The notes under the pieces: model-generated
Databases searched by the model: none
What the model saw: the letters and a program-made list of their open reading frames with translations, nothing else
What the model was told of the DNA's origin: nothing
Shown here: positions 3,098 to 57,210 of the stretch, piece after piece
Position numbering within the stretch: the stretch's first letter is position 1
Layout: the number at the start of each line of letters is the position of its first letter
From: a virus
DNA length: 64,000 nucleotides
Virus record (IMG/VR): IMGVR_UViG_3300020122_000089
Span: 1-64,000 of that record
Direction: 5' to 3' (one strand)
Program-made: the position numbers and the translations under genes

Positions 3098-3103
3098 GCA
3101 GCC

Positions 3104-3301: not shown

Positions 3302-3395
3302 GTGGCTCGTACCAGAAGATACCGTCCTTCCTGAACTTCGTAAGGCCGTAGATGGACACGTTGCGGCGCTGTTCGCAAAGAAGGAGGCGAAATGA
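3267..3395 (+). CDS. Small hypothetical protein overlapping the upstream gene
   Basis: A 42-residue frame (starts MVQVDFVTGAIKWL, ends AALFAKKEAK) filling the otherwise empty stretch 3302-3391. Its TGA overlaps the next ATG (ATGA), and the AAGGAGG inside its end serves as SD for that gene. It has no good SD of its own, so it is either translated by coupling or is the C-terminal part of the preceding protein after a frameshift. Confidence 0.5.
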   Translation: MVQVDFVTGAIKWLVPEDTVLPELRKAVDGHVAALFAKKEAK

Positions 3396-23703: not shown

Positions 23704-23976
23704 TTAATTCACTCCTTCTTGGTTAGATTCGATTTCTTCCGGAAGAATTCCGGTGGCGGCGAGGATGCCGTGCGCGGCGATATAATTCATCATCGCGGCC
23801 TGCTCCTCTTCTTGCTTGCGGAAGTCTGGGCGTCTGCGGCGTGGGGTTGGGGGCATTCCCTCTCTGACATGTACCATCCATGCTTCACGGTCTGGGAATG
23901 GACCGGCGCCACATTTGCAGTTGATAACGCTAAGCGACGCTTCAGATGCAGACTGTATGCCCATGTTGATCCACAT
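23704..23976 (-). CDS. First gene of the leftward early operon
   Basis: A 90-residue protein. NCKCGAGPFPDREAWMVHVREG resembles a Cys2-His zinc finger. The C-terminus contains GILPEEIESN from a palindrome (23736-23745). The ATG is only 9 nt downstream of the -10 box, so the mRNA is probably almost leaderless. Function unknown. Confidence 0.6.
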   Translation of the reverse strand: MWINMGIQSASEASLSVINCKCGAGPFPDREAWMVHVREGMPPTPRRRRPDFRKQEEEQAAMMNYIAAHGILAATGILPEEIESNQEGVN

Positions 23977-28351: not shown

Positions 28352-28729
28352 TCACCGCTCCTTTATGTATAAAACGCCTTTTGACTTTGACATTCCTAAT
28401 CTTTGCGCTATTCGCTCAGACGCTTCGGTTTCTGCTATCATTATAATACCGGGAAATATCCCGCCTTGCTGGCTGATTCTTTCTTGCATTGAATAGAGGG
28501 CATCTTCCCAGATTGTTGGGTTTGTCCTGTGGTCTGGACTGATCCATCCCGGCCCTAGATGTGGAAGCACTTCACATGAAACAAATGCTACTATTTCACC
28601 GGATTCGTTTTCTGCAACTCGGATTGAACCTACGGCAGGATGTGGAAGTGGCCAATCATGCTCGCGGAATATGTTTTCAAGTTTTTGAAATTCAGATGGA
28701 GGAAGCCATCTGAAATAGATTGCGCTCAT
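28352..28729 (-). CDS. GNAT-like acetyltransferase-fold protein
   Basis: A 125-residue protein from ATG 28729, which overlaps the giant gene's TGA (ATGA). SIRVAENESGEIVAFVSCEVLPHLGP and ASERIAQRLGMSKSKGVLYIKE resemble strands of small GNAT-fold phage proteins. Catalysis is unproven. Confidence 0.5.
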   Translation of the reverse strand: MSAIYFRWLPPSEFQKLENIFREHDWPLPHPAVGSIRVAENESGEIVAFVSCEVLPHLGPGWISPDHRTNPTIWEDALYSMQERISQQGGIFPGIIMIAETEASERIAQRLGMSKSKGVLYIKER

Positions 28730-31700: not shown

Positions 31701-34700
31701 CTGATTGATTTCGCACTATCCACTTTCTTGCATTATCATCAAATTCAGCCGTCCATCCATTTGTATCCTCTGGCGTCTCTGAAAGTTTTTTCTTTAGCCT
31801 CTGTATATCATTCTGCAAATCATCTTGATATTCGTCTAGGTGGAGGATTTTTTCACCGCTAGGACCTACCCTATCGTTTACACGGAGGAGGGCTATGCGG
31901 TTCGTGTCGGCCTCGGGGATACCGTAGGCGTGAGCACCGGGAACTACGTAGCCACCTTTCGGCCCAAGCCCCCCCTGCTGTTGAATGTACTTCCGTATGG
32001 CGTCATCTGGCGTATCCGCCGACGTAAATCTCCTACCTTGTCGATCCCGTACAACGTGTTTTCCATCTTCTTGTGCGACATAAAATCCATCGGGTAATTC
32101 TAGTGTTAATAGGGGTGTTCTATCAATCGGGAGTGATAGCGTTAGCTCCCTATGGTTTTCGCCGCCGGGGGTGGTCCATTGTGTAAACCGTGGCAACCCC
32201 TCTTGCTTTTCTAATGATCCAGCGATCAATCTTGCGTCTCGTCGAATACGAAGGGGCATTTCATCCGCTGTAAGAAAATCTGAGTGAGGAGCGGCGCCTC
32301 GCCTTACAAACACAACTGACGGATCAGCTCCAGGGACGACGTCCGTAATATATCCCGCCGCCTCTAGTCGCTGTCGGGCTGCGGCGTATTCTGGCGTACC
32401 CTGTCCACCAAACTGCCTTTCTTGCAGCTCCACCCTATTCTTCGCAAGATAATCTAATACTTCTTGTTTTGTTACGGGTTCTTTTGCGGAGGATTTGCGC
32501 TGGAGGAAATCATAAAGGCCAGTCCAATGCGCTTCATCGTTTGGGCGCTCTATTCCGCCTTCGCCTTTGACTATAAAACCACCGCTACGGAGAATACCTT
32601 TTACCTGCTCGGCGGATGCTTTGTTTGGCATTCTTAATTTAACGGCGTTTTCAAGAGGGCTGTACCATTGCGGTGCTTCGTTGTGAAGTTTTGACCAAAC
32701 ATCTTCTAGGTATGGACGCACTCTTTCCCCAAGGCGTTCTACCATATCCTTCGTCCATTCTTTGATATTATCTGCGGTGTATTTGCCGGCTTTGTAGGCG
32801 TCCCAACCTGTGATTATGGCGGTGTCGTATAGGGCGTGGATTGGGTTTGCGCTTAATGTGTTACCGCTTAATCCTTGGCGCAATCTGTCGCGGGATTTTT
32901 GCACGAATTCTGGCTCTTTCTCGGCGCCTTCCATTGACTGATCTATTGCTTCTTTCGCCGCCTTCTCGCCAATATATCCCTCAGCGTCATGAATATTTTT
33001 ATAGACTTGTGGAAAATGCTTTTGAAGTTCTGCATCTGATAAATCGGATAGTCTTGTCGCGTTTGGATTTACCCGTCTTACATCCGCCATTGTTGGATGT
33101 ACGTCTGAAAGAAGCCCTACATCGGGCCAGTCTATTTCTGGAACTTTTCCCATCGCCAAGCGGTCAGCACCTTTGATTCTAGTATTTCCTGTTTCGCCAA
33201 AAGGACTTTGTATTATACGTGTTTGCGCGTCAGGTGTCAAGACCATTAGCTTTTCACCACCGGGAAATCTTCCTACTACCGTATAATCAAGATTACGCCC
33301 ACCGCTTCTATATTGCACTATGGTGGAGGGCTGACGCCCGGTAGCGGCATCTATACCCCGTACAGTACCGGTCATTTGTACAGGGTCTTTGAACTCCATC
33401 CTCATCGCCTTAAAGGCGTCTAATCGCTGGCGTGCGTCAAGACCTGACTGTTGCATTTCCCTGTGAATATCTGGCACTTGTTCGGCGTTTATTTCGTCTA
33501 CTGCATTACGGTGAATGTTGTAGGTTTTTCCGGTTTGTGTATTTTGTACTTTGTACGCTTCGCCTTCTTGGCCAAGAACTTTTAATGGATTTCCGGTTCT
33601 GCGGTCGTATGCAGTACCAGTGGTTTCTTGACCATACTTCTTACGGAGGAATTCTCCTGCTTCTTGCGGGGTTGCGCTTTGTGGAATTACATTTTCCACT
33701 CGCTGCCCAGTGGTAGGTTTTTGAACCACCGGCGGCGGCACTCTTTTAGTAGGGGGCGTAACGCCTTTAGCAACACCTTGTTCTGTTGGTACATTTGCCG
33801 CACCTCGTTCGCCGTTCCAGGCCGTCATGCCATGTCGTATAAAATAAATACCGTTTTCGAGTGGCTTTTTATCGTCAAGGCTGATTCGTTCTAATCCCCA
33901 TTTTCCGTTCGCATCGGGTGCGAATTTCAACACTGTACCGGGAGGGTCGTCGCCTTTCGCTAACATGTGCGCTTCGTCAAAACGATTGTTGGTAACCCCC
34001 TTTTTCAGCCAAGCCTCTAGCATTTTCAAGTCGCGGTAGTGGGTGACAACGCCAACCTTTTGCGGATTATCTTCATAATCAGCCATCGCCTCGCGGAGGC
34101 CGCCTACAAAACGGTCACGGAAATTTCCAAAACTTTCACCTGGTTTTGTACTTGCTTCGCCACGCCCTTCGGCTGGAATTTGTGGGTTCTTAATCAAGCG
34201 GTGCATTTCGTCTAGGACGTCTTGAGTTGGCCTTCCTTCATGCTGACCTAAATACCAAGGATCGAAAGCATCGCGGCTGTCTAGCCTTTGTAGGTTTGGA
34301 TTTGACTCAGCTATTCCATCCTTGGTTTGACGGACGCGCTCCATCTGTTCATTGCCATACAGTACATCAAGACCGCCTTTTGCGGCTAGTTTTGCACCTA
34401 TTTCGCGGGCTTGCTGTACGCCTTCTGGCGCAAGTGGGATATTTGTAGAGCCACGGATTACATCAACGCCAGACTTCATTCCTGGCAGTTCACTCTGTCG
34501 CTTTTGATCTATTAGGCTAGGCAGTGCTTCGCGTCTTGCCGCCTCTAATTCTGGCGTCACCGCTGCGGGTTGGTATCCTTCTAGTCTTCTGTTGATTTCA
34601 TTTTGGACGTCAGTATCCATTCCTATTTTTGGCCTTCCCGCTGGTGGTAGTTTGGTTTCTTCCGGAACTGTCGGGGTACCGCCACGCTCCGTCGCCCCTA

Positions 34701-42764: not shown

Positions 42765-42793
42765 TTGACCTTTTGACGTAAATATGTTATATT
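42765..42793 (+). promoter_or_regulatory. Leaderless promoter of the LAGLIDADG gene
   Basis: TTGACC (42765-42770), a 17-nt spacer and TATATT (42788-42793), with ATG 8 nt later and no SD. The -35 box starts 8 nt from the divergent gene's ATG. Confidence 0.8.
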
Positions 42794-42801
42794 AAACACC
42801 G

Positions 42802-43704
42802 ATGACCAGAATACATACATTAAACGAGTCGCGTTTTGCACGGGTGGATTCTGAGGATGCGGCCTATTGGTTAGGCTTTATTGCCGCTGATGGATGCGTG
42901 ACCGACCAGGGTGATTTCGCCATACAGCTTGCCAGGCAGGATGAATGCCACCTCCATGATTTACGAGATTGGTTTGGCAGTACACACGCCATCAGTCGTA
43001 AAGAACTACCATACCCTTCTTCATCTTTTACATTTCGATCACGTATAATCGCTGATAATCTTGCCAGGTATGGGGTCACCCCTAGAAAATCCATAACCTT
43101 AAATTGGCCGTCAGAATTAAACCCCACCTTATATCGTCATTATATCCGTGGATATGTCGATGGCGGCGGAGGGTTATATTCCGGTAAGGCTCGATCAAAC
43201 CAATCAACCTTCCATTTTAGCGTCATCGCCACTAAAACATTTGCAGATAAGCTACAGTCGGTGCTGATGTCAGAGTGTCGATTAAAGAAAACTAAGCTAG
43301 GTAAAAGTAAGGCTGGAATGGTTATTGTTGAATACGGAGGATTCTTGCAAGTTAAGAGAATTTTTCATTATCTTTACGATGGCGCTACTGTTTATTTATT
43401 GCGTAAACGATTTCCGATTCAATTAGCATTAAGCATGCACGTAAGACCTTCTAGCCAACCAACCGACGAGCAGTATCAAAGGTGCGCAACATTGCCGCAT
43501 GATGAAATTTGCCAACTATATATCGATGGTGATAGCACTGTTGACCTTTCTCGTAAATATAATGTTTCCATTGGCGCTATAACAAGTATAGTAAGGAAAC
43601 ATGGGCTATTAAGATCAACCAAGGAGGGTACGAGACTATACTGGGTAAGAAAGGGTAGCGAAATTCTTCCGGAGGAAATCAAATCCGAACTGGATGTTCT
43701 ATGA
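42802..43704 (+). CDS. LAGLIDADG homing endonuclease
   Basis: A 300-residue protein on the strand opposite its neighbours. The first LAGLIDADG helix is AAYWLGFIAADGC, followed by a DNA-contact region (FAIQLARQDECHL); a second helix is YIRGYVDGGGGLY. The C-terminal part has a helix-turn-helix-like segment (DLSRKYNVSIGAITSIVRKHG). It is predicted to cut a long asymmetric site and spread itself. The end SEILPEEIK is a one-mismatch palindrome copy. It overlaps the minus-strand gene end by 26 nt. Confidence 0.85.
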   Translation: MTRIHTLNESRFARVDSEDAAYWLGFIAADGCVTDQGDFAIQLARQDECHLHDLRDWFGSTHAISRKELPYPSSSFTFRSRIIADNLARYGVTPRKSITLNWPSELNPTLYRHYIRGYVDGGGGLYSGKARSNQSTFHFSVIATKTFADKLQSVLMSECRLKKTKLGKSKAGMVIVEYGGFLQVKRIFHYLYDGATVYLLRKRFPIQLALSMHVRPSSQPTDEQYQRCATLPHDEICQLYIDGDSTVDLSRKYNVSIGAITSIVRKHGLLRSTKEGTRLYWVRKGSEILPEEIKSELDVL

Positions 43705-45391
43705 ACAAACCCTCCGCACCCACAACCTGCTTGCCGCCAGCATCGCTACCGCTCATCCCTATTGCAAAACTATGAATTTCCTGGATATCTAAATGCTTGA
43801 ACTGGCCTGTTTGATTCGCACCTTGAGAAATGTTTGTTCCTTGCGCATTTGACGTTGAGAGATTAAGATCGCTATAGATATCGAGCCGGTGGGCAACGTC
43901 TGCAATCGACTCGGCGCCTATAAAGGTTTTTCCAAACGCGGCAAAATCACCTGCTTGAAATTGAGATACTAAACTCCAACCTGTACCGCCGCCTGTTTCG
44001 GGGGTGTAAAGATTACCTGCCGAGTCAGAGAACAAAGCCCTTCCGTTTACAGTATCAGTTACCGCTGTAACTATCGAGGCAGGCATGTCCATTGGGGTGT
44101 TCCATTGGGCGAGATAACGATTGTAGGAGATACCGATCGAGCCATTAACATAAAATACACTATCCGATGCGGGGTCGTAACATACCACCACGTTGCCAGC
44201 GGCATACCCGTTAGCAGCAAAAAATTGCATAACAGGGGCGGCGAAAGAGGTTGCTTCGTCGTTCGGGTCGCGATAAGAGCTGCCACCTAAACTGTATCTA
44301 TCTCTGACAGGGCCGCGAGTGCCAAGCCAGGCGTATATCTCACCTCCAACGGTGGCGATTTGATTTGCACTTACCACACCTGTGGTTGGCCAAATTGGGT
44401 AGACGTTTAATGGGCTAATAGTGCTCTGTGATGCTGATACAAGATTCACACTTGAAGCGGTACAAACAAGGACCCGACCTTCAACGCCACTTCCTTTTAC
44501 AGCAGTAATCGTTCCACCGCCGGGAATGAATAATACAAAACTTACGGGATAGGCTTCTGGCTTGTTTGGGTACGAGGGGGATAATCCAGCACCACCATAA
44601 CATCCTGCCGCTACTATGACAGAATTGATTGCAAAACAAAAACCACAGGTGGGCGGAACGCTGAAGGTCTGAGGAGCTAAATCGCCAAGCTGCGCGTCTA
44701 TCCATCCAGGGGTTGTGTCGTTTGGTACTTGAATCGTATATGGAAGAGTCGGAATAGTAGTGTCGTAAAGATGAAAGTAAGGACCGATAGAACCAAACCC
44801 GCGCTTTGTAGCGTAAATGCCTATCTTGTTTGCACCAGCAGGAAGGCCGGGAAGGGCTGTGATATTTATTCCATGATTAGTGACTGATATGACATTTGAA
44901 GGTGCGCTGACGCTCGATTCGCCACCTGTTAAGGACCTGATTCCAGTAACGGCAATTGAATAAGCACCATTGTTATGCCCGGCGACGCCACTATCGGCTA
45001 TTGTTGGCGCGCCTGGTGGTAAGAGGCCAGCAGCTACGGCCGAGCTTCCTGTGTAAATCGTTACCGATCCGCCTTGAACAGCGCCAAGCGTTACGCCGCC
45101 AACCCTTGCAAATCCAGAGCCAGCGAAGAAATAAATTCCATTGCCAAAAGCCTGTACTATACTTCCGCCACCGCTTAACCCTCCATAAGTAGAGGCGACA
45201 TTTAATAGCGGATTCACGCCACCTGAACTAGCAACGGACCCACCAAAGCCTTTCGAGGTAATTAGTAACCCTTTACCACGTACCCATAGATTTTTACCGG
45301 CCAATAGGGTATGTGGTACGCCAAAGATTGGCGCAGTAGAGGGCCAATAGCCGTTTTCAAAGAAAAATCTCGCGGGTATTCTATCGCTCAT
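43679..45391 (-). CDS. Large virion-type protein, unknown
   Basis: A 570-residue beta-rich, Gly/Ser-rich protein (MSDRIPARFFFENGYWPST; WVRGKGLLITSKGFGG). It looks like a tail or capsid-surface protein, possibly a beta-propeller. The ribosome site is the palindrome (GGAAGAAAATG, core 45395-45404). No family recognised. Confidence 0.55.
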   Translation of the reverse strand: MSDRIPARFFFENGYWPSTAPIFGVPHTLLAGKNLWVRGKGLLITSKGFGGSVASSGGVNPLLNVASTYGGLSGGGSIVQAFGNGIYFFAGSGFARVGGVTLGAVQGGSVTIYTGSSAVAAGLLPPGAPTIADSGVAGHNNGAYSIAVTGIRSLTGGESSVSAPSNVISVTNHGINITALPGLPAGANKIGIYATKRGFGSIGPYFHLYDTTIPTLPYTIQVPNDTTPGWIDAQLGDLAPQTFSVPPTCGFCFAINSVIVAAGCYGGAGLSPSYPNKPEAYPVSFVLFIPGGGTITAVKGSGVEGRVLVCTASSVNLVSASQSTISPLNVYPIWPTTGVVSANQIATVGGEIYAWLGTRGPVRDRYSLGGSSYRDPNDEATSFAAPVMQFFAANGYAAGNVVVCYDPASDSVFYVNGSIGISYNRYLAQWNTPMDMPASIVTAVTDTVNGRALFSDSAGNLYTPETGGGTGWSLVSQFQAGDFAAFGKTFIGAESIADVAHRLDIYSDLNLSTSNAQGTNISQGANQTGQFKHLDIQEIHSFAIGMSGSDAGGKQVVGAEGLFIEHPVRI

Positions 45392-45392
45392 T

Positions 45393-45406
45393 TTCTTCCG
45401 GAAGAA
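45393..45406 (-). promoter_or_regulatory. Palindrome copy serving as SD between divergent genes
   Basis: Exact TTCTTCCGGAAGAA. Leftward it gives GGAAGAAAATG for ATG 45391; rightward it lies 9 nt upstream of the -35 box at 45415. Confidence 0.85.
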
Positions 45407-45414
45407 TTATTTTC

Positions 45415-45443
45415 TTGACATCTGATCGGAATTAACATATAGT
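45415..45443 (+). promoter_or_regulatory. Sigma70 promoter with downstream inverted repeat
   Basis: TTGACA (45415-45420), a 17-nt spacer and TATAGT (45438-45443). The 45-nt leader contains GACGAT-AGGA-ATCGTC (45454-45469), a perfect 6-bp inverted repeat near the transcription start, suggesting an operator or RNA hairpin. SD GGGAGGG precedes ATG 45489. Confidence 0.8.
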
Positions 45444-45488
45444 TAATAACGTAGACGATAGGAATCGTCAAAAGGGAGGGAAAGATCG

Positions 45489-45701
45489 ATGTCGTTCAAC
45501 ATTAAAGAAGAAATTGAAAAATTGCCGCTGTCGAAACAGCATGAATTACGTCACATCCTAGCGACCAATAGCTGGCCTGGATGGGACCTACTAAGACTTC
45601 TCGGAGAGGAATCAACATTGATGACCGTCGGTGAAGAATGGGTAGATGACGCTATGGGGTATTTTAATATTCCGCCTCATGGTACATCGTTTACGGGATA
45701 A
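45489..45701 (+). CDS. Antisense-inserted small gene
   Basis: A 70-residue acidic protein (MSFNIKEEIEKLPLSKQHELRHILA) with its own promoter and a good SD, unlike the leaderless inserts. Its TAA is directly abutted (0 nt) by the stop of the minus-strand gene. Function unknown; the operator-like repeat hints at regulated expression. Confidence 0.65.
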   Translation: MSFNIKEEIEKLPLSKQHELRHILATNSWPGWDLLRLLGEESTLMTVGEEWVDDAMGYFNIPPHGTSFTG

Positions 45702-46274
45702 TCAAAATAGCTTAGGTCTGTCCATTGGGCGGCCGTTAACCTTTGCGGCCGTCCTTGCGTATTCAATCGCCATAGTGCTGGTTTGTACACCAGAATAAGC
45801 GGCATGGAGTTCGTCTATGTCACCTTCGATTGATTGAACATGGCCGCAAAGATGGCATCTGTTAGCCCAAACCATCCCCCCATGGCTACTAGAGTAGTGG
45901 CGGAATATCCTTTGATAATGCGGATGCTGCTTTAGATCGGGCTCTCTTTCGCCTGCTTCGATTGCCTTTCCATGTTGAACGTAGTCCGTGGTATCAACCA
46001 TGTGAACGCAATCACACCGCTCGCGATCGTCTATTTCTTCGCCGTCTTTTAATGATTGAATGAACTTTAGATTCTCAGGGTCAACTTCTATTACAAGGGC
46101 CTCATTCCAACGCCCCATCCTCATGAGTGCTTCTACAAGCTGGGCGCGGCTGCCTACCTCTTGGCGTTGCGAGACGATGAGAATCTTATCGTCGATAGTG
46201 AGAGACTCCATCTCCGCTAAACTGCGCGGTTCTTCTATCGGCATATATGGTATTTTTTCGCTTGCTTTTGGCAT
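45702..46274 (-). CDS. Hypothetical virion-region protein
   Basis: A 190-residue protein with CHLCGH and CDCVH (possible zinc ligands) and an acidic helical middle. The start is uncertain: Met11 (46244) would leave the divergent promoter free. No SD is seen. Not recognised. Confidence 0.55.
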   Translation of the reverse strand: MPKASEKIPYMPIEEPRSLAEMESLTIDDKILIVSQRQEVGSRAQLVEALMRMGRWNEALVIEVDPENLKFIQSLKDGEEIDDRERCDCVHMVDTTDYVQHGKAIEAGEREPDLKQHPHYQRIFRHYSSSHGGMVWANRCHLCGHVQSIEGDIDELHAAYSGVQTSTMAIEYARTAAKVNGRPMDRPKLF

Positions 46275-46290
46275 TTGGTTGTGCTATACT
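46262..46290 (+). promoter_or_regulatory. Near-leaderless promoter
   Basis: TTGCTT (46262-46267), a 17-nt spacer and TATACT (46285-46290), with ATG 10 nt later and no SD. Confidence 0.65.
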
Positions 46291-46300
46291 AGCTCGCGTT

Positions 46301-47239
46301 ATGGATAGAAAACTTATTATCGAGGCGATGGACGGTAAATTAGCCGCAATAGCTAAGTGCGAATCCGATCTTCGTGTAAGAGCTGAATTGCGCCAACCGG
46401 AATATCGCCAAGAGGTTCAACGTGAACAAATGATGCTTGAGGCTGGCGAAATATATCGCTGGACGCAAGAAACGATTGGCATAGCAAAGGCTTCGACAGT
46501 AACATTTCCATTAGACGCCAAATTCGACAGGTCTTGGCTTTATACCCCTGCCGGATGGTGGTGGCTTGGTAGGGATGCAAATCTCATCGTGCATTCACCC
46601 GACCCTGCACATAACGGCATGCGCCAGCGTGTTTGCGCTATTTCGTATGGGCTATTTGACGGCGGCGCTGCGGCATTTTTATCTGACCGATCCGCCATTA
46701 AAGATTCGCTCAATAGTAAGCCGCTCGTTCTACTCGGTGCATTTACCTATGACCACCTTGAGAAGCAGATCGGGCCAGTTCCTAGCTGGTACGGATTTTG
46801 GCCAGAAGGCGAAACACTAGAACAGACATTGAAGCGCGAGACTAGCACCCCTGATAAATATCGAATATGGAGTAAAAACGGCATTCAGATTCTACCATTT
46901 TTCGCCGCCGCGAGCCTTTGGCTTCAGCAAAAGATTGTCTCTTTGCAATCTGTCAAGTACGACGGTAAGGGCAATCCGCCACGGCGATTCAGACGTAAGG
47001 ATGCGAAATGGAGCGTTCAAATTATTAGATTGCGCCGGCGTGAAAATATCTCGCAGTCTACTAATTCTCATGGCGATATTGAATGGACGTGTCATTGGGT
47101 CGTTAAAGGCCATTGGCGAAATCAATTTTATCCATCCACAAACACTCATCATCCGATATGGATCGACCCTTACTTAAAAGGCGACGAGACAAAGCCATTA
47201 AAACTTCATCCTGATCGTGTTTACGTAGTACAAAGGTGA
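46301..47239 (+). CDS. Antisense-inserted hypothetical protein
   Basis: A 312-residue protein starting MDRKLIIEAMDGK, chosen from the promoter and not from the longer frame at 46247, which includes the -35. Trp-rich C-terminal part (WTCHWVVKGHWRNQFYPS, HHPIWIDPYLKG) of a kind I recall from uncharacterised phage proteins. Function unknown. The next gene follows 7 nt later with SD AAAGGTG. Confidence 0.65.
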   Translation: MDRKLIIEAMDGKLAAIAKCESDLRVRAELRQPEYRQEVQREQMMLEAGEIYRWTQETIGIAKASTVTFPLDAKFDRSWLYTPAGWWWLGRDANLIVHSPDPAHNGMRQRVCAISYGLFDGGAAAFLSDRSAIKDSLNSKPLVLLGAFTYDHLEKQIGPVPSWYGFWPEGETLEQTLKRETSTPDKYRIWSKNGIQILPFFAAASLWLQQKIVSLQSVKYDGKGNPPRRFRRKDAKWSVQIIRLRRRENISQSTNSHGDIEWTCHWVVKGHWRNQFYPSTNTHHPIWIDPYLKGDETKPLKLHPDRVYVVQR

Positions 47240-47246
47240 AACCGCC

Positions 47247-47612
47247 ATGCCAATAGATTATGCCGCTATCGCAAAACGTCTTGATGAAAGAAAGAAGATT
47301 TACAATAAGCCGCATCCGTGGGAGGAAGGGTTTTCGATTGAATTGTATGCAATTGATTGGATGGAATACCGCATTCTAAAACTCAATAGAGAATCGGATG
47401 AATATGCTACGTGGTATGAATCCTATCGTGCCAATAATACAATGGGTAGATTCTTCCGAACGCATTGCGGCGTCTCTGCTATTGAATTACTCACAAAACT
47501 TCTTCATGGACAAATCACGCTACCGCACTCCGAACGCACGTTATGTCCTCGATGTAATCTAATCCGTGAACAAAGAAAGATGGCAAAGAATCTAAAGTGG
47601 AGTAAATCATGA
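47247..47612 (+). CDS. Antisense-inserted small protein with Cys pair
   Basis: A 121-residue protein, co-transcribed with the preceding gene. C-terminal LCPRCN plus an upstream HCG may bind zinc. It ends 9 nt from the stop of the opposing gene, leaving no room for a terminator. Function unknown. Confidence 0.6.
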   Translation: MPIDYAAIAKRLDERKKIYNKPHPWEEGFSIELYAIDWMEYRILKLNRESDEYATWYESYRANNTMGRFFRTHCGVSAIELLTKLLHGQITLPHSERTLCPRCNLIREQRKMAKNLKWSKS

Positions 47613-47621
47613 TGCCGCTTG

Positions 47622-48236
47622 CTATTGCGATGGTGCGCCAGGTAATTGGGGCGCTGCATCTGCTGTTTCCGCTTGTCTAATTACTTCATTCAATGCGCCG
47701 CTTTCAAGTATAATCGCTGCGCCGATGTCCGCGATATTGTCAAATAATTCCCCGTCAAATACTGCGTCTGTCAAATCCGCCGGAACTTTTTGCCCTACCA
47801 ATTGAATTGAGGTTCCGGCAGGGATACTGCCTAGGTTATCACGGACAAAAAGATTTTGCTCAAAAAAGGTATAGTAGAGGTAGTCATTGTCGGGTATGGG
47901 CGGTGGGTTCATTAGGTCATGATACGTAGGTCTGAATTTAAGTCCAAATCGCACTCCGGTCATGGTAATACGGATGTGTTTTCTAGCCTTACGTGAGAGT
48001 AGTAAGGTAGGTGCTAGATTATGAACAGGCACCTGCCCTGCGTTTAAGGTTAAATCCCATTCGTTTTGAAGAAGTGGAAAGAGATAGTCATCCGCCGCAA
48101 CACGGTCGGCTAGTCTTTGTAGGGCGGTTGGGATAGTGGACTGTATAGAAACGCGCCACAGTTTGCCTTGAGGTTGTGGAAGGCCTTTCGCCAGCCTTAG
48201 CCACACTGTATCTACATATTGCTGTACGGTTGCCAT
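47622..48236 (-). CDS. Hypothetical virion protein
   Basis: A 204-residue protein (MATVQQYVDTVWLRLAKG, WDLTLNAGQVPVHNLAPTLL, HIRITMTGVRFGLKF). Probably a connector- or tail-type structural protein by location only. Its SD is the variant palindrome TTCTTCCGGGAGAA (core 48243-48252), giving GGAAGAAACAAATG. Confidence 0.5.
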   Translation of the reverse strand: MATVQQYVDTVWLRLAKGLPQPQGKLWRVSIQSTIPTALQRLADRVAADDYLFPLLQNEWDLTLNAGQVPVHNLAPTLLLSRKARKHIRITMTGVRFGLKFRPTYHDLMNPPPIPDNDYLYYTFFEQNLFVRDNLGSIPAGTSIQLVGQKVPADLTDAVFDGELFDNIADIGAAIILESGALNEVIRQAETADAAPQLPGAPSQ

Positions 48237-48254
48237 TTGTTTCTTCCGGGAGAA

Positions 48255-48965
48255 TTAAGCCGCCTGACCTGCCATTTTTGCGGCAATGTTCTCCCTTACC
48301 TGAGAAGGAATCGACCCTTCGCCACTTGCAATTGCGCTTAATCCTTGTTGGAACATTTGACCCCAACCACCCATTGGGCCTACATTTTCCCCTTCCACCG
48401 GAACGGCAAGTGACATAGCGCCACAAGTGACCACCCATCTGTATTCATCTGCCGCTTGACAGGCTGAGGCTTGTGTGAATGTTGGGGCGGTTACATTAAC
48501 ACTCACCGATCCGCCGCCGCTACGAGCGGCTATCAAGGCACCGTTGTGGAAGATGACCTTGCCGTCTGTCGCATAGTGGCAATCGAAGTCTAGCCCTAAT
48601 GGATTAGCCGAGACATGGGTTAATTCGTATTGTATCTCGGCAGGGTCCCATTCGATGCCTGGACGGTTGCCTGGCGCCGTCCCTCCTGTTACCACAAATA
48701 CGACACTCGCCATTGGGCCGGCCATTGCCAATAGGGTGCCGCCATGCGCAAGACCGGATTGGGTGGAGTAGTAGAGGGCCGATCTGCCATTATCCTTATT
48801 TCTAAAGGTGGCCGCGCAGACTATAGCGTCCGCGGTTAGGATTAGGTCGGTAACCTGATTGGTATTCCAACGGGGGTCCACCACCACACCCGAATATTGG
48901 CCAGGGGTGCCGGCATTTAAGAGCGTGATGCAATCCGCGAGGACCGTTGCCAGGCTTACAGCCAT
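48255..48965 (-). CDS. Hypothetical virion protein
   Basis: A 236-residue protein, Ala/Gly/Val-rich and probably structural (SLATVLADCITLLNAG; GSVSVNVTAPTFTQASACQ). The ATG lies 8 nt from the -35 box of the antisense HNH gene. No family recognised. Confidence 0.5.
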   Translation of the reverse strand: MAVSLATVLADCITLLNAGTPGQYSGVVVDPRWNTNQVTDLILTADAIVCAATFRNKDNGRSALYYSTQSGLAHGGTLLAMAGPMASVVFVVTGGTAPGNRPGIEWDPAEIQYELTHVSANPLGLDFDCHYATDGKVIFHNGALIAARSGGGSVSVNVTAPTFTQASACQAADEYRWVVTCGAMSLAVPVEGENVGPMGGWGQMFQQGLSAIASGEGSIPSQVRENIAAKMAGQAA

Positions 48966-48972
48966 TTGCTAC

Positions 48973-49001
48973 TTGACTCCGTTTGGAAATAGTAGTATAA
49001 T
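48973..49001 (+). promoter_or_regulatory. Leaderless promoter of the HNH/AP2 gene
   Basis: TTGACT (48973-48978), a 17-nt spacer and TATAAT (48996-49001), with ATG 7 nt later and no SD. The upstream flank CTACTTGAC matches that of the LAGLIDADG gene. Confidence 0.85.
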
Positions 49002-49008
49002 ATAGCCC

Positions 49009-49890
49009 ATGCGTAGATTTAACCGAATCAAAAAAGAGTGCCTACATGATAAAGAGCCGGACGGCGCGGTGCATATTCCACTTGGACATGGGCAATGTGC
49101 TATAGTTGACATGGAAGATTATCCGACATTGATAGCATACAACTGGATGGGTGGGCGATATGCGTATACAGTCATCGGCGGACGTAAAAACCCCCAAAAA
49201 ATTTACATGCATCAACTAATACTATCAACACCAAATGGGCGTCAGGTGGATCATAGAGACAGGAATCGGATGAATAATAGACGTATAAATCTAAGGCCAG
49301 CCACCGCATCCGAACAGGGACATAACAAGTCGGTTAGTAGTTCTAGTACAACGGGCTATAAAGGCGTGTCGCGCTCTGGCAATAATTTTTGTGCATATAT
49401 TAAGACAAACGGGCATCGAATCATTCTTGGCACATTTATTACCGCAGAGGGTGCTGCGTATATCTATGACGATGCGGCTAGGATTCATTTTGGAGAATTT
49501 GCAGCCTGTAACCTTCCTCCCGATCCTCAGAAGGTAATTCAGGCAAAGCTCAGACAATGCAAAAGAAGGGGCCACCCTCTCCATATCGGCGTATATCGTA
49601 GGGGCGATAAATGGGCGGCGCAGTTCAAAAAGGATGGCGCATGGATTCATTTAGGTCTATTCGCGACAGAGCAAGAGGCGTACCAAGTAACGGTGTTGGC
49701 TACTAACGGAGATTTCACCAAAAAGAAACCAGGTGAAGCGCAAAGAAAATTCACAGCCGAACAGATACTGGATATCAGGAAAATGCGTCGCGACAAGGTG
49801 CCTTATTCTACCATCGCCACGTATTTCTCTACTTGTATTGCTACGATTCAAAGTATAGTTTCGTATAGGTCCTATAAGGATATCCCCTAA
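49009..49890 (+). CDS. HNH homing endonuclease with AP2-type domains
   Basis: A 293-residue protein. The HNH core is MHQLILSTPNGRQVDHRDRN with NRRINLRP. Two AP2-like DNA-binding repeats follow (TGYKGVSRSGNNFCAYIKTN, HIGVYRRGDKWAAQFKKDG). The C-terminus has a helix-turn-helix-like TAEQILDIRKMRRDKV. It is predicted to be a free-standing homing enzyme. Its stop overlaps the opposing small gene's stop by 3 nt. Confidence 0.88.
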   Translation: MRRFNRIKKECLHDKEPDGAVHIPLGHGQCAIVDMEDYPTLIAYNWMGGRYAYTVIGGRKNPQKIYMHQLILSTPNGRQVDHRDRNRMNNRRINLRPATASEQGHNKSVSSSSTTGYKGVSRSGNNFCAYIKTNGHRIILGTFITAEGAAYIYDDAARIHFGEFAACNLPPDPQKVIQAKLRQCKRRGHPLHIGVYRRGDKWAAQFKKDGAWIHLGLFATEQEAYQVTVLATNGDFTKKKPGEAQRKFTAEQILDIRKMRRDKVPYSTIATYFSTCIATIQSIVSYRSYKDIP

Positions 49891-50009
49891 CCAGCTAATT
49901 TCCACCCCTCACAATTTTCATTGCAATCATCAGCCAGCCACAACCTACCGCATTGGCATTTGAATACGTGAACTGATTCGGGCGGTAGAATTCTCTTGCA
50001 AATGCACAT
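49887..50009 (-). CDS. Very small zinc-ribbon protein
   Basis: A 40-residue frame: MCICKRILPPESVHVF, then CQCGRLWLADDCNENC, two Cys pairs typical of a minimal zinc fold. Its stop overlaps that of the HNH gene. Its 5' part contains the -35 box of the divergent plus gene. No SD seen. It explains the stretch 49891-50031, which otherwise lacks a gene. Confidence 0.6.
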   Translation of the reverse strand: MCICKRILPPESVHVFKCQCGRLWLADDCNENCEGWKLAG

Positions 50010-50025
50010 CGTTGTATGTTATAAT
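49996..50025 (+). promoter_or_regulatory. Leaderless promoter
   Basis: TTGCAA (49996-50001), an 18-nt spacer and TATAAT (50020-50025), with ATG 6 nt later. It lies inside the start of the divergent 40-residue gene. Confidence 0.75.
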
Positions 50026-50031
50026 GCGGCA

Positions 50032-50568
50032 ATGCTTTGGTGTTTATCTAACCGTTGTGATATACTTGCCTTACCGTTAGCTGATCGCCATTACAATCGC
50101 CAAAAGATAGGATCGCCACAATTCGTTCCGCCGGGCAGATGTATTGTCCTGCTAACCCCTCAAGCGGACGCTCTCTGGGTATCATCTTGGCCGTTAAAGG
50201 AATTCACAAAACATGCATGGTCTGGCGCATGGATCAATACATTATTCCGTAATGAATCTGATATTTTATCAAGCATACTAATTCAAGGGGCGGTAGCCAT
50301 CACCCGTGGTATTTGGGGCGACCCACCCCGATTAGGTATGGTGACGTTCATTGATAAAACCAAGGTAAAGAAGAAACGCGATTGGGGTAGATGCTACCGT
50401 CGAGCTGGATTTATTCCAGCGCAATGCCCGATTCATTATCCAGGGGTGACACGCGACTGCGCCTCTTGTCGTCATGAAACGTCTATCAACCATCTTTTTG
50501 CAGTACAGATGTTGCCGACGGCGATGCCCGAACCTAAGTATTTCCCGTCGTTATTTGACTATCTTTAA
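50032..50568 (+). CDS. Antisense-inserted hypothetical protein
   Basis: A 178-residue protein from ATG 50032 (MLWCLSNRCDILALPLADRHYN); the longer frame includes the promoter. His/Cys-rich C-terminal part (CPIHYPGVTRDCASCRHE). Not recognised; the N-terminal fold might be SOS-response-peptidase-like, but this is a guess. It overlaps the opposing gene end by 35 nt. Confidence 0.6.
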   Translation: MLWCLSNRCDILALPLADRHYNRQKIGSPQFVPPGRCIVLLTPQADALWVSSWPLKEFTKHAWSGAWINTLFRNESDILSSILIQGAVAITRGIWGDPPRLGMVTFIDKTKVKKKRDWGRCYRRAGFIPAQCPIHYPGVTRDCASCRHETSINHLFAVQMLPTAMPEPKYFPSLFDYL

Positions 50569-51169
50569 CCTTTGCAACATTCGCTGGGACAAAGTAATCC
50601 GTGTGGCAATCTTTGCATTGATGAACGAATCCGCCTGTTTCGCCAAGGATTTGTTTGTGTGCGGCATCTTCTTGCATGCCGTATTTTTTCATTGTTGAAT
50701 CTAGGCGTTCTTTGTACTTCGGGTTGTCGATTGGAGGGTGCCACGGCCCGGCGTCAGCACCACACGAAGGGCATTTTCCAGGCCCGTCGGCGGCATGCAC
50801 CATATCGCCTTCGTATACTTCGCGGCCGTCTACGATTAAGAATCCGTCACCGCAAGGGATTTTCTCGATGTTTTCATCCTTTGACATATCTTCGGTGGGC
50901 TCTTCGCTTGCCGCCATAGCTTTTGGTTCTTCCGGAAGATTGACAAAAACGGTTAGGATATCTTTGCCGTCAAATTGAAGTGTGTATGATTCTTGCGGAT
51001 CGACAAGAATAGAGCCAGCAGCGCCAACCTCACCAACCCCAGTAATCTCTATCTTATTGACAGGGGCGGATAAATACCAAGTGAGGCGCACTTTATCGCC
51101 CTCTACCTTAGCGGTAAAGCAGCTGATGATACTAGGCGGTGGTGGTTGCTCTATGTTGTCATCTGGCAT
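50534..51169 (-). CDS. Hypothetical protein with beta domain and zinc ribbon
   Basis: A 211-residue protein. The first ~80 residues look like a small Ig-like strand set (SCFTAKVEGDKVRLTWYLSA). A linker with LPEE from the palindrome (50929-50938) follows, then CPSCGAD...CKDCHT. TAATG overlap with the upstream gene. Function unknown. Confidence 0.55.
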   Translation of the reverse strand: MPDDNIEQPPPPSIISCFTAKVEGDKVRLTWYLSAPVNKIEITGVGEVGAAGSILVDPQESYTLQFDGKDILTVFVNLPEEPKAMAASEEPTEDMSKDENIEKIPCGDGFLIVDGREVYEGDMVHAADGPGKCPSCGADAGPWHPPIDNPKYKERLDSTMKKYGMQEDAAHKQILGETGGFVHQCKDCHTDYFVPANVAKVKDSQITTGNT

Positions 51170-51939
51170 TAGTAGCCCCCGGGCCAGCCCCTTCCAATTC
51201 TACCTGCACGGCTTTCGCCAAATATCTTGCGCCGTTGAGGCGTCTCACGCCTGAAGCCGCTCCAGCGAGCTTCTTCAAAGAGCGGGGCCCATTGCTGCAC
51301 CTTCTTTTCTTGCGCCTGCGCTAGTAGTTTTTGCCGCTCGTTCAGCCCTTTATCTGGGTCTGCTAGAAATGCAAAAAGGTTTAATGCGCAGTCAGCTATT
51401 AGAAAGAAGTGCTGCTCCTCGATTGGGAATAATGATGTATCATCGAAGATAGGCGGTACGCTCGCCGATCCGGTAGAATATGTTACCATATATACACAGG
51501 ACTGGCTATGCGCGGGCGTCCATAGCATTTTCCATTGCCCATCTTCGTTGATTGGCGCAAAACAGGCTGCTACGTGAGGATGCGCCCATCCACCACCTAT
51601 AGGTAAATTGTCAGGCCCGCTCCAGTAAGAGGTCATTTGATCGACCCTAACGGCGTCTATCATTCTTGGAATGTGATATGGATTGTTAGGGTCGTATGTC
51701 TTTATCATTACCACTTCGGCGAAATCGCCTAGGGTGATATTTGTTTCAGCGGGCAGTCCTGCATTGACAGGCATTGGCCATCGTTTTACCGACCAGCTTT
51801 CATGTGTTAAACGTAGCTTCGTTCGGTAGAAGGCGGTAACACCCCAGGCCTCCATTAAGATTTGGTCGTCGCCTAACTCTTGCTCGGACGGGTAGCCTAA
51901 GGCTCGTCTGACTTCGCCAATGAAAACGGCCATTAGCAT
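51169..51939 (-). CDS. Hypothetical virion protein
   Basis: A 256-residue protein (MLMAVFIGEVRRALGYPSEQ, FYRTKLRLTHESWSVKRW, IDAVRVDQMTSYWSGPD); the start could be Met3. Aromatic-rich, probably a structural protein. Its start lies 6 nt from the -35 of the antisense 51981 gene. Confidence 0.5.
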   Translation of the reverse strand: MLMAVFIGEVRRALGYPSEQELGDDQILMEAWGVTAFYRTKLRLTHESWSVKRWPMPVNAGLPAETNITLGDFAEVVMIKTYDPNNPYHIPRMIDAVRVDQMTSYWSGPDNLPIGGGWAHPHVAACFAPINEDGQWKMLWTPAHSQSCVYMVTYSTGSASVPPIFDDTSLFPIEEQHFFLIADCALNLFAFLADPDKGLNERQKLLAQAQEKKVQQWAPLFEEARWSGFRRETPQRRKIFGESRAGRIGRGWPGGY

Positions 51940-51944
51940 TTTGC

Positions 51945-51973
51945 TTGACCCCTTAGAACAAATGTGCTATACT
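51945..51973 (+). promoter_or_regulatory. Leaderless promoter
   Basis: TTGACC (51945-51950), a 17-nt spacer and TATACT (51968-51973), with ATG 7 nt later and no SD. Confidence 0.8.
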
Positions 51974-51980
51974 ACGAAAC

Positions 51981-52097
51981 ATGGAATCTTCCGGAAGAAA
52001 GAATTTCATTGTTCAACATCCAAATGGCGACCTCACCCTCTGCGGGCCTGGTAGATCGAAAACCTTCAACATACCATCTAAAATCACTCAACAGTGA
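51981..52097 (+). CDS. 38-residue protein with palindrome-encoded N-terminus
   Basis: Frame MESSGRKNFIVQHPNG...TQQ. Residues 2-6 are the palindrome (core 51988-51997) read as SSGR. The leaderless promoter and clean ends support it despite its size. Function unknown; it precedes the 52125 gene. Confidence 0.6.
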   Translation: MESSGRKNFIVQHPNGDLTLCGPGRSKTFNIPSKITQQ

Positions 52098-52124
52098 ATA
52101 CAGTTCCCATGCCTCAGAAGAAGC

Positions 52125-52373
52125 ATGCGGCACATCCTAGAACATGCTGAACCGTGCGAAGATGTACGGTATCAAGTAAAGATGGCGCTTTTGGTTGATG
52201 CCGCTCTTTTAGGGTGCGGCCAGCAAAACGATCCAGGTTGGCCGTACCTGCCTACTGAACCCATAGCATGCCTGCCAGTTTCAGATTTGTGGTTGAATGA
52301 AATCCTGGCATTGCCGCATATTGCTGAACGGATACAGAAATCTCATGACCCACTTACAGTGCCAGCCGATTAA
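52125..52373 (+). CDS. Antisense-inserted small protein
   Basis: An 82-residue protein (MRHILEHAEPCEDVRYQVKMALLVDAALLG), second gene of the 51981 transcript with a weak AGAAGAAGC site. Its TAA overlaps the TAA of the opposing gene by 3 nt. Function unknown. Confidence 0.6.
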   Translation: MRHILEHAEPCEDVRYQVKMALLVDAALLGCGQQNDPGWPYLPTEPIACLPVSDLWLNEILALPHIAERIQKSHDPLTVPAD

Positions 52374-53908
52374 CCGCCAAGAATAGACTTCAACACCTGA
52401 TCCTTTGCACCTTTTGGATCAAGTCTAGCGGCTATCTTTTCTATGTCGGCTTCGTCTTCGGGGGATAGTTTTACGGGTGGAGCCATTGGCCCTACCGATT
52501 CGTCATCGTCTTCTTGATTTGATTCCGTCGCCAATGGCATCGCTTTGTCCATTTCAATTGCCGCTTGAACGCCAGGCGATGGCTCGACAAAGGCCGTTGG
52601 CGCGTAGGGCGCTGCTGACTCACCTACTGGGCGGAATTCATACCCGCAATGGCGACACTTGCGAGGCGGCCCTCCGTTGATTGTGTTGATCTCCTCTGCG
52701 CAATCTGGACATTGCATTTTTTGGATAGTCGAGGCGGTAGCCGCAGGCTGTCCATTTCCCGCATTCTTCGCCACAACTGTTTCGATGTACATCTTGATTT
52801 CTTCCGGAGAAAGACCGCCACGGGTGGTGGATTCAAGAGTACGGCTTAGTGCAGTACGTTCGGGTTTGCGACCTAATAGCCACGCGAGCTTGAAGTAGTA
52901 ACGGTCGTAATTGTCCGTATTGTTAGGATTGCGCATCCTATCTTCAATTGCGGCTATTCTTGTTTCGGCGATGATTCTGAATTGGTCATTGGCGGGTATC
53001 ATGTAATCCATTATTGCGCGGTGCCACGCATCGCGCAGGAACGGCCTTGCGTCAATCACCCTGCGATGTGATTCAAGCATGCGGCCAGTTTCAAGACGTT
53101 CTACTGCATCTTGAAGCCAGCGGAGGCGGATGGCGAGCATACCTACCGCCTCTATCTCATTTCGCATGTCGGCGGGTTTGTCGAGTTCTTTTACTCGCGA
53201 AGGTCGAATCATTTCATTCAACGTGCTGTATTCAACGTCTATCTTATCGAATGGTTCGATATGCGCTAGGATATGTGACGTGATAGCGCGGTCTGATCTG
53301 AGGGCTTGAAGCGTAGTCCCGGCGGGGATTGCAATTACGTGCAACCTTCCTATCTCTTTTTGTTCGATTGGATGGCTTATCACCACCTCTTTGTGCGGAA
53401 CGGCTTGGTCGAGCCTACCGGCTAATACGGATTCTTCAATAGCGCCAATCCTGAACACTTCGCCGGCGGGGATTCTTGAATACGCAGGCGAGTGAAGCAT
53501 TGGCTGTAACCCTTCTGCGTCAATGCCTGGAATGTAAACATAATACGGGCCGGGTTCGGCGGTATTGATATCCCGCACCGTGATGCGTGGTTGCATTTCG
53601 TTTGGCACCATCGCATCTTGCCCAAGATTGTCAAAAACACTCTTTTCAACTGTCGCGCTACTCATGGTTGGTCTCCTTAAACTCTTTTTCTTTCTTCCGG
53701 AAGAATTCTTTAGGGCCGCTCCGGTGATTTCGGCCATTTTATGACGGATGACTTCGTAGGTGTCTTTTGAGGTGTTTAATTCTGTTTCACCTGAAACGCT
53801 TGACGCCCATTCAAGAAGGATTAAAAGGTTTTCATCGTTGAAACTTTCATGCGGAGAGGTTTGACGTGCGTTAAACCAAACGTCGCGGAGGTATCTTTCC
53901 CATGCCAA
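52370..53908 (-). CDS. Virion-region protein, probable fusion of two genes through a palindrome
   Basis: A 512-residue frame. Residues 1-81 (MAWERYLRDVW...) lead through NSSGRKKK, the palindrome at 53694-53703, into an internal ATG at 53665 that has its own SD (AAGGAGACCAACC). The downstream 431-residue protein (MSSATVEKSVFDNLG...) ends with a zinc ribbon (CPDC...CRHC) and an acidic tail. Either one long protein with an internal start is made, or a short upstream gene has lost its stop. Structural role likely, unproven. Confidence 0.6.
   Translation of the reverse strand: MAWERYLRDVWFNARQTSPHESFNDENLLILLEWASSVSGETELNTSKDTYEVIRHKMAEITGAALKNSSGRKKKSLRRPTMSSATVEKSVFDNLGQDAMVPNEMQPRITVRDINTAEPGPYYVYIPGIDAEGLQPMLHSPAYSRIPAGEVFRIGAIEESVLAGRLDQAVPHKEVVISHPIEQKEIGRLHVIAIPAGTTLQALRSDRAITSHILAHIEPFDKIDVEYSTLNEMIRPSRVKELDKPADMRNEIEAVGMLAIRLRWLQDAVERLETGRMLESHRRVIDARPFLRDAWHRAIMDYMIPANDQFRIIAETRIAAIEDRMRNPNNTDNYDRYYFKLAWLLGRKPERTALSRTLESTTRGGLSPEEIKMYIETVVAKNAGNGQPAATASTIQKMQCPDCAEEINTINGGPPRKCRHCGYEFRPVGESAAPYAPTAFVEPSPGVQAAIEMDKAMPLATESNQEDDDESVGPMAPPVKLSPEDEADIEKIAARLDPKGAKDQVLKSILGG
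53663..53703 (-). promoter_or_regulatory. Internal start with SD and palindrome
   Basis: Palindrome core 53694-53703, then AAGGAGACC and ATG at 53665 in frame with the upstream reading frame. The arrangement resembles the gene-boundary pattern seen elsewhere, except that the stop codon is missing. Confidence 0.6.
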
Positions 53909-56481: not shown

Positions 56482-57210
56482 CTAGGGGCTCGATTTTCCA
56501 CACTCTTTCGCTATGCGTTTGACGAATAAGATATCAGCCTTTCGCGTTTCTTCTGCATCGGCGGCACGGCGAGCTTCTTGCGCTTCTTTTTCTTTATCTT
56601 CGGCTATCGCCTTTAATCGTTCTAGGTGCGTCTTACCGGCGTATTTATCTGGGGGTGGATACGTCCATGTCGTGCCGCTGCCACTAAACGTGATTACGCC
56701 CGTTAGGCCGCCTAGGTCGACGTAGTCCGGTATCTGCCTCGCCGCCTTTTGAATGGCTAAAAGGAGATTTTCCCGTGTGCACTCGATATCATTGCCAGTC
56801 TTGGCGGTGGTGGCCTTAGTTGCCGCCTCGCAGCAATCGTTGAATTCTTTAGTACCGGGCACACCACCGCACCCACATAGCCATTGAGTCTGAGTGGGCG
56901 GAAGCGTGAACGCAACCACCCTTCCGGTCATGCGTGATGGCTCTTGGATGTGTAGCACATGTAGCGCTTCATCTCGCCGACGCACCATATTAGCCCACGT
57001 ATTCTCGCGATTGAATTTCCTCCACTCTAAAACATCACCAATCTCAGGATGGGTGATGCCTTCACATTCAAGCGCCTTAGCCTCCCAAAGCATCGCTGCA
57101 CGTTCCCATTTGCTTGTAGCGTCTTGCCATGCGGATACGGATTGCGCATTGGCGGCGGTATGGATTAACGATATCGCAACCGTTAAGAATAAGAGGATTC
57201 GTAATTTCAT
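56482..57210 (-). CDS. Secreted protein with signal peptide, leaderless mRNA
   Basis: A 242-residue protein from MKLRILLFLTVAISL, chosen because the promoter's -10 lies inside the longer frame. Signal peptide at residues 1-23, cleavage expected near ANA-QS. The mature part has several Cys (CGCGG, CC) and a charged C-terminal helix. Likely exported to the periplasm or cell surface; candidate moron altering the host envelope or a late accessory. Function unknown. Confidence 0.65.
   Translation of the reverse strand: MKLRILLFLTVAISLIHTAANAQSVSAWQDATSKWERAAMLWEAKALECEGITHPEIGDVLEWRKFNRENTWANMVRRRDEALHVLHIQEPSRMTGRVVAFTLPPTQTQWLCGCGGVPGTKEFNDCCEAATKATTAKTGNDIECTRENLLLAIQKAARQIPDYVDLGGLTGVITFSGSGTTWTYPPPDKYAGKTHLERLKAIAEDKEKEAQEARRAADAEETRKADILFVKRIAKECGKSSP

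What the first reader, a model, noticed from the sequence alone, without database searches (positions are those of the whole stretch)
42765..52373. Antisense gene cassettes inserted without any free space
Six rightward units are embedded in the leftward virion operon. Their promoters begin within ~8 nt of the divergent gene's start codon, and their stops overlap or abut the opposing stops (overlap 26 nt at 43679-43704, 0 nt gap at 45701/45702, 9 nt gap at 47612, overlaps at 49887-49890, 50534-50568 and 52370-52373). No terminator fits. They look like morons, two of them homing endonucleases, and their transcripts must run antisense into virion genes, so they could repress late genes.
Basis: partly seen in the sequence, partly recalled or inferred. 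Interest (0 to 1): 0.72.

Follow-up and report, generated by a model that had tools for sequence, protein, structure and literature searches.

The report
Antisense self-promoted genes inside phage operon
An uncultured phage carries six small gene units, two of them homing-endonuclease genes, slotted backwards into the junctions of a long gene array, each with its own host-type promoter and almost no spare DNA; they look like hitch-hiking mobile cassettes, and a related cassette in another phage family is present in some relatives and missing in others.

Summary
The window is part of a 104-kb uncultured virus record whose genes from 5.6 kb on run leftward except these six rightward units (plus two antisense intron-borne endonuclease genes just past the window). 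Five of the six strongest rightward sigma-70-type promoters in 64 kb sit exactly at unit starts. In five units the start codon falls 6-10 nt after the -10 box, so their mRNAs should be leaderless; only ten genes in the record share this design, seven of them antisense.

Unit 1 is a LAGLIDADG endonuclease that lost its second catalytic aspartate, unit 4 an HNH-AP2 endonuclease, unit 5 a GNAT-like protein. 'No terminator fits' is partly wrong: the best rightward intrinsic terminator of the window lies inside the opposing gene after unit 5.

No relative of this virus was found, so empty sites could not be tested here. But unit-5 homologues occur antisense in virion operons of unrelated phages, and in one family a 746-bp promoter-to-stop antisense cassette is present in some relatives and absent from ~95%-identical ones.

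Verdict: compact moron and homing-gene cassettes in antisense; precedents are the P22 ant moron and T4 segD. New variant of a known kind. Antisense repression of late genes remains untested and less likely than collateral interference.

The parts
42765..42793 (+). Unit 1 promoter TTGACC-N17-TATATT with extended -10 (TG); 7 nt from the divergent start codon at 42757; ATG 8 nt after the -10
42802..43704 (+). Unit 1: free-standing LAGLIDADG homing-endonuclease-like gene, 300 aa, HTH-like C-terminus; second catalytic D replaced by G (DGGG against DGDG in four relatives); overlaps the opposing stop by 26 nt
   Evidence: PF14528 26.1 bits over cut-off 22.5; phrog_4645 3.6e-44; PDB 2dch E 0.008; alignment
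45415..45443 (+). Unit 2 promoter TTGACA-N17-TATAGT
45489..45701 (+). Unit 2: 70-aa ORF; the only unit with a 5' leader (about 39 nt) and a Shine-Dalgarno-like GGGAGG; stop abuts the opposing stop
   Evidence: coding score 0.45; no family match
46262..46290 (+). Unit 3 promoter TTGCTT-N17-TATACT with extended -10 (weakest, 11.5); overlaps the start of leftward gene 45702-46274
46301..47239 (+). Unit 3 first gene, 312 aa, phrog_15934-like C-terminus; predicted leaderless
   Evidence: 4.8e-18; homologous segments in actinobacterial phages
47247..47612 (+). Unit 3 second gene, 121 aa, unknown; stop 9 nt from the opposing stop
48973..49001 (+). Unit 4 promoter TTGACT-N17-TATAAT, 7 nt from the divergent start at 48965
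49009..49890 (+). Unit 4: HNH-AP2 free-standing homing-endonuclease-like gene, 293 aa, predicted leaderless; 4-nt stop overlap
   Evidence: PF13392 27.3 bits over cut-off 24.8; phrog_99 4.3e-40; AP2 match in PDB
49996..50025 (+). Unit 5 promoter TTGCAA-N18-TATAAT with extended -10, inside the leftward 40-aa ORF
50032..50568 (+). Unit 5: 178-aa GNAT-like protein (phrog_24928 family), predicted leaderless; 35-nt overlap with opposing gene 50534-51169
   Evidence: phrog_24928 6.3e-42; 80 homologous loci; AlphaFold pLDDT 86, best PDB match acetyltransferase 1yvk prob 0.94, E 0.06
50660..50690 (+). Intrinsic terminator (stem-loop then TTTTTT) inside opposing gene 50534-51169, about 90 nt past the unit 5 stop; best rightward terminator score in the 64-kb window
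51945..51973 (+). Unit 6 promoter TTGACC-N17-TATACT with extended -10, 5 nt from the divergent start at 51939
51981..52097 (+). Unit 6 first ORF, 38 aa, predicted leaderless
52125..52373 (+). Unit 6 second ORF, 82 aa, unknown; weakest gene call; TTAA stop overlap with 52370-53908
   Evidence: not called by the coding score
49887..50009 (-). Leftward 40-aa ORF that opposes units 4 and 5
56482..57210 (-). Leftward leaderless self-promoted gene of the same promoter design, sense orientation
62673..63533 (-). Leftward leaderless self-promoted DNA methylase (PF01555), sense orientation
23704..23976 (-). Leftward leaderless self-promoted 90-aa gene, sense orientation

Best explanation
The six units are acquired cassettes of the moron and free-standing homing-endonuclease kind, inserted in antisense between the stop codon of one leftward gene and the start codon of the next. 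Each carries only what it needs: a sigma-70-type (mostly extended -10) promoter and one or two ORFs, usually with no 5' leader. Host RNA polymerase would read them independently of the leftward operon, probably early or constitutively. Because of their orientation they are never part of the late polycistronic mRNA, and heavy leftward transcription should switch them off by collision and promoter occlusion. Conversely their transcripts run into virion-region genes, which is tolerated and in one case (U5) limited by a terminator embedded in the opposing gene. U1 and U4 owe their presence to homing (U1 now probably impaired as a nuclease). The others would be kept for their own functions; U5 is a GNAT-like protein often found near phage DNA methylases. 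Shown: orientation, promoters, families, fit in the junctions, and presence/absence of a homologous cassette elsewhere. Inferred: acquisition in this phage, leaderless expression, timing, interference.
For: Apart from the early block at 1-5.6 kb, rightward genes occur only here and in two introns just past the window. Strong rightward promoters in the window coincide with unit starts. Ten leaderless self-promoted genes exist in the record, including four homing endonucleases and a DNA methylase. Family matches: U1 and U4 endonucleases, U3 phrog_15934, U5 phrog_24928. Unit coding scores are lower than those of leftward neighbours, p=0.003. Each unit fills exactly the space between a leftward stop and the next leftward start, and leftward neighbours elsewhere in the array also nearly abut. 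The same U5-type gene sits antisense and leaderless next to a major-head-protein gene in unrelated phage L168 (-35 box 10 nt from the divergent start). In L210 and its relatives a 746-bp antisense cassette (promoter -35 about 7 nt inside one border, TTAA stop overlap at the other) is present, while L212 has 6 bp at the site and L211 an unrelated ~125-bp stretch.
Against: No relative of this virus was found, so no empty site is shown for any of the six units themselves. Lower coding scores could partly reflect strand bias, since the early rightward genes also score low. U2 has a normal score and a leader, and U6 rests on weak gene calls. Most U5 homologues in other phages are not antisense on both sides (8 of about 71 with both neighbours visible). 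Promoters are consensus matches only, and the host and its sigma factor are unknown.
Confidence: 0.75

Rival explanations
1. The antisense arrangement is itself a regulatory device: early rightward transcription represses or times the leftward late genes, and has been kept for that purpose.
For: The promoters overlap the divergent genes' start regions, and most units lack a terminator at their stop. In P22 the ant moron is thought to affect read-through into the tailspike gene (PMC2629481).
Against: No RNA data. U5 has a terminator that would cut its antisense transcript short. The units encode unrelated, mostly mobile-type proteins, and U5-type cassettes in other phages sit at varied sites and can be absent in ~95%-identical relatives, which a needed regulator would not do.
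Confidence: 0.12
2. Ordinary compact phage gene packing: native genes that happen to lie on the other strand, with no recent insertion.
For: No empty site is shown in this lineage; U2 and the early rightward genes show that native rightward genes exist.
Against: Isolation of the units in a leftward array, homing-endonuclease content, shared stand-alone promoter design and lower coding scores.
Confidence: 0.12

Closest known systems
[quoted passage not shown]
   Same: Independently expressed genes inserted within a virion-gene operon, variable between relatives; affects read-through into the next gene (PMC2629481, PMC8022706)
   Different: One location only per phage, several genes with known regulators; here six separate junctions in 10 kb, promoter-plus-ORF units without spare DNA, and two homing endonucleases
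T4 segD, free-standing homing endonuclease
   Same: Antisense to the flanking capsid genes 23 and 24 (PMC2988022)
   Different: No segD promoter was found and its transcript is thought to be nearly absent; here each antisense endonuclease gene has a strong host-type promoter and no leader. T4 endonuclease promoters are middle or late, never early.
Morons sensu lambdoid and mycobacteriophages
   Same: Autonomous ORF with its own promoter inserted between genes contiguous in relatives (definition quoted in PMC3029335)
   Different: Classic morons have a terminator at their end; these end in the opposing stop codon, one with a terminator inside the opposing gene
Antisense homing-endonuclease genes in nuclear rDNA group I introns of myxomycetes
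   Same: HEG on the strand opposite to its host gene, needing its own promoter (PMC9548176)
   Different: Eukaryotic, with two polymerases; here a phage, and the window's HEGs are not in introns (the two just outside the window are)

Membership tests
Moron (autonomous inserted phage gene) | Own promoter independent of the surrounding operon | tested here: met
   (sequence prediction only)
Moron (autonomous inserted phage gene) | Own terminator | tested here: not met
   Only U5 has a good one, and it lies inside the opposing gene; the other units have none at their stops. So 'moron-like' rather than strict morons.
Moron (autonomous inserted phage gene) | Present in one genome and absent from a relative at the same junction | tested here: inconclusive
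   No relatives of this virus; met for a homologous U5-type cassette in L210 against L211/L212
Free-standing LAGLIDADG homing endonuclease (U1) | Two LAGLIDADG motifs with catalytic acidic residues | tested here: not met
   Motif 1 intact (LGFIAADG), motif 2 DGGG in place of DGDG; the family profile matches, so a family member that is probably catalytically impaired
Free-standing HNH homing endonuclease (U4) | HNH domain plus DNA-binding modules, outside an intron | tested here: met
   HNH_3 over cut-off, AP2, no intron match in the window
Free-standing homing endonuclease (U1, U4) | Cuts a cognate allele and is copied into it | not testable with these tools
   needs bench assay
Leaderless mRNA genes | Start codon at or within a few nt of the transcription start | tested here: inconclusive
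   -10 to ATG distance 6-10 nt for five units; transcription starts not mapped
GNAT acetyltransferase superfamily (U5) | GNAT fold | tested here: inconclusive
   AlphaFold pLDDT 86, best match a GNAT at prob 0.94 but E 0.06 and TM 0.52

The most novel reading that the evidence does not exclude
A general class of minimal antisense cassettes in phages (extended -10 sigma-70 promoter plus leaderless ORF) that enters stop/start junctions of virion operons and the P8 region of group I introns. They stay expressed early from the host polymerase and are shut off automatically when late transcription sweeps through from the other side, so orientation replaces a regulator.
Probability: 0.3. Interest if true: 0.8.

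Novelty: new variant of a known kind. Interest (0 to 1): 0.58.

Why it matters
Mobile genes in phage late operons must be expressed without wrecking virion production. T4 uses middle/late promoters and hidden ribosome sites, and its one antisense endonuclease gene (segD) seems silent. Here is a phage with seven antisense leaderless self-promoted cassettes in one record, at least four of them homing-endonuclease genes, with parallels in unrelated phages. This makes it testable whether antisense placement is a selected way to keep mobile genes on early and off late, and how much antisense transcription a virion operon tolerates.

Tried and rejected
Relatives of this virus: megablast and tblastn in phages, pattern-seeded scans of viral and genome contigs with several proteins, all without a usable relative. 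Scan of viral contigs with the palindrome TTCTTCCGGAAGAA: chance single hits only. Tunturiibacter phage Tunturi_4 has a similar terminase but is a differently organised siphovirus. Unit 3 protein: no viral contig hit. Structure of leftward protein 51169-51939 without an alignment: unusable, pLDDT 32. Profile comparison of leftward protein 43679-45391 with the head-closure family of L210: no similarity. In L210, ORF 'g255' first looked like a virion gene interrupted by the cassette. The real gene there is antisense and nuclease-like, so the L210 insertion lies at a convergent stop/stop junction, not between two same-strand genes. The first gene call missed two antisense HNH genes; the promoter-first search recovered them. 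Single-gene integrase and sigma-factor searches of the record were negative; the RNA polymerase search had no working control.

Full report
What the sequence shows. The window is bases 1-64000 of a 104,058-base IMG/VR virus record. An ORF list and a codon-pair gene call show rightward genes at 1-5.6 kb and then leftward genes to the end, interrupted only by the reported units and, as found later, by two rightward HNH genes at about 64.8 and 68.1 kb just past the window. I correct two starts: U3 begins at 46301 and U5 at 50032, since the longer ORFs start inside or upstream of the promoter. U3 and U6 hold two ORFs each.

Promoters. Scored with a sigma-70 matrix, the + strand of the 64-kb window has six sites of score 13 or more; five are at U1, U2, U4, U5 and U6 and the sixth at the early block (1384). 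Random sequence of the same composition gives about one. U3 has a weaker one (11.5). Four of the six carry the extended -10 TG. In U1, U3, U4, U5 and U6 the ATG follows the -10 box by 6-10 nt, so the transcript should start 0-4 nt before the start codon. Over all 141 called genes only eight have this arrangement at score above 11, with a clear gap to the next. A promoter-first search independent of gene calls finds ten credible cases in the record, seven rightward and three leftward (56482-57210, 62673-63533 a DNA methylase, 23704-23976), against about 0.7 per 64 kb in simulated sequence. U2 differs: it has a leader of about 39 nt with a ribosome-binding site.

Fit into the junctions. Each unit occupies exactly the space between the stop of one leftward gene and the start of the next. 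The distance from divergent start codon to -35 box is 7, 23, -13, 7 and 5 nt for U1-U4 and U6. In U1, U4 and U6 the complement of the -35 box (GGTCAA, AGTCAA, GGTCAA) lies within about 5-8 nt upstream of the leftward ATG, where a ribosome-binding site would be expected. Leftward genes elsewhere in this array also nearly abut, so a precise excision would restore a normal operon spacing. This is inference; no empty site was seen in this lineage.

Terminators. Intrinsic terminators are absent at the unit stops, as claimed, but the best-scoring rightward terminator of the whole window lies about 90 nt past the U5 stop, inside the coding region of opposing gene 50534-51169. So one unit does have an end signal, written into the opposing gene.

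What the units encode. U1: LAGLIDADG endonuclease family, with the second catalytic aspartate replaced by glycine, whereas four phage relatives keep it. U4: HNH endonuclease with AP2 modules. U3: phrog_15934-like. U5: phrog_24928, common in uncultured phages (80 loci kept of 156). Its alignment has an invariant ADRHYNRQK block, and the predicted fold resembles GNAT acetyltransferases. A link to DNA modification (Mom-like GNATs) is my guess from memory and from its frequent closeness to DNA methylases. U2 and U6: unknown. The label 'virion operon' for the flanking genes is weakly supported: only 50534-51169 has a weak structural-protein match, though portal and terminase genes lie on the same strand elsewhere in the record.

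Comparison. No relative of this virus could be found. The U5 family offered an indirect test. In L168, an unrelated contig, the U5 homologue is antisense, leaderless, with TTGACA 10 nt from the start codon of a divergent major-head-protein-like gene. In L210/L196 it is antisense to a small gene that follows a head-closure gene, sharing a TTAA stop overlap. Eighteen relatives of that operon were fetched. L211 and L212, about 95% identical on the far side of the site, lack the cassette: L212 has 6 bp and L211 an unrelated stretch of about 125 bp where L210 has 746 bp. The inserted piece runs from about 7 nt before a TTGACA-N17-TATTGT promoter, through a 54-aa ORF and the U5 homologue, to the shared stop. 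In L226 the U5 homologue sits at a different convergent junction of the same region. Most other U5 homologues are not antisense on both sides.

Related elements outside the window. Record positions 64.3-69.0 kb hold four group I introns on the leftward strand. Two contain HNH endonuclease genes on the opposite strand with leaderless sigma-70 promoters (L002:802-1434 and 4103-4768), and a third contains one in sense. So antisense, self-promoted endonuclease genes are a theme of this virus, not an oddity of one site.

Mechanism. Best supported: acquired autonomous cassettes read by the host polymerase independently of the leftward operon, with late leftward transcription likely to silence them by interference. 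Shown here: architecture, promoter enrichment, families, and an empty site for a homologous cassette elsewhere. Inferred: timing, leaderless translation, interference and its direction. Antisense repression of late genes as a selected function is possible but nothing here supports it specifically.

Known precedents. P22-like phages carry a variable 'ant moron' in the late operon, at one location only (PMC2629481). T4 segD is an antisense free-standing endonuclease gene between capsid genes, without a recognisable promoter, and T4 endonuclease promoters are middle or late, never early (PMC2988022). Antisense endonuclease genes within group I introns are described in nuclear rDNA introns (PMC9548176). 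Searches of the held papers for leaderless or antisense morons in phage late operons found nothing matching, which is weak evidence of novelty.

Noticed in passing
window, 35 sites; whole record 57 sites (e.g. 45395, 39641, 27500, 7997): The perfect palindrome CTTCCGGAAG occurs 57 times in 104 kb; every other palindromic decamer listed for the window occurs once. Half lie within 60 nt upstream of leftward start codons, often 3-17 nt, like the start-associated sequences of Cluster K mycobacteriophages (PMC3203893) but palindromic; function unknown. None lies directly upstream of the start codon of a leaderless rightward unit.
   Followed up: partly
L002:333-576, 721-1637, 2376-3306, 4024-4969 (minus strand; record about 64.3-69.0 kb): Four group I introns close together (RF00028, E 1e-14 to 3e-22), interrupting a leftward gene region that looks capsid-like by eye only. 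Two hold HNH endonuclease genes on the opposite strand with leaderless sigma-70 promoters, one holds one in sense. Antisense endonuclease genes in phage group I introns would be unusual.
   Followed up: partly
window 43156-43180: U1 second LAGLIDADG motif reads VDGGGG where relatives have DGDG, so a catalytic aspartate is lost while the 300-aa frame stays open; perhaps a DNA-binding or nicking remnant.
   Followed up: partly
window 20478-21821: Phage-encoded bacterial-type DNA polymerase III beta clamp, only 22-31% identical to phage records.
   Followed up: no
window 28726-37389: A 2887-aa leftward ORF, the largest protein of the window, not searched against any family library.
   Followed up: no
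L168:3692-8091: Two major-head-protein-like genes (415 and 521 aa, both phrog_2263) separated by an endonuclease VII-like gene and the antisense U5 homologue.
   Followed up: no
L212:2479-2856 minus strand: Antisense nuclease-like gene (VRR-NUC-like by eye, not confirmed by Pfam) ending in a 4-nt stop overlap with a small gene that follows the head-closure gene.
   Followed up: partly
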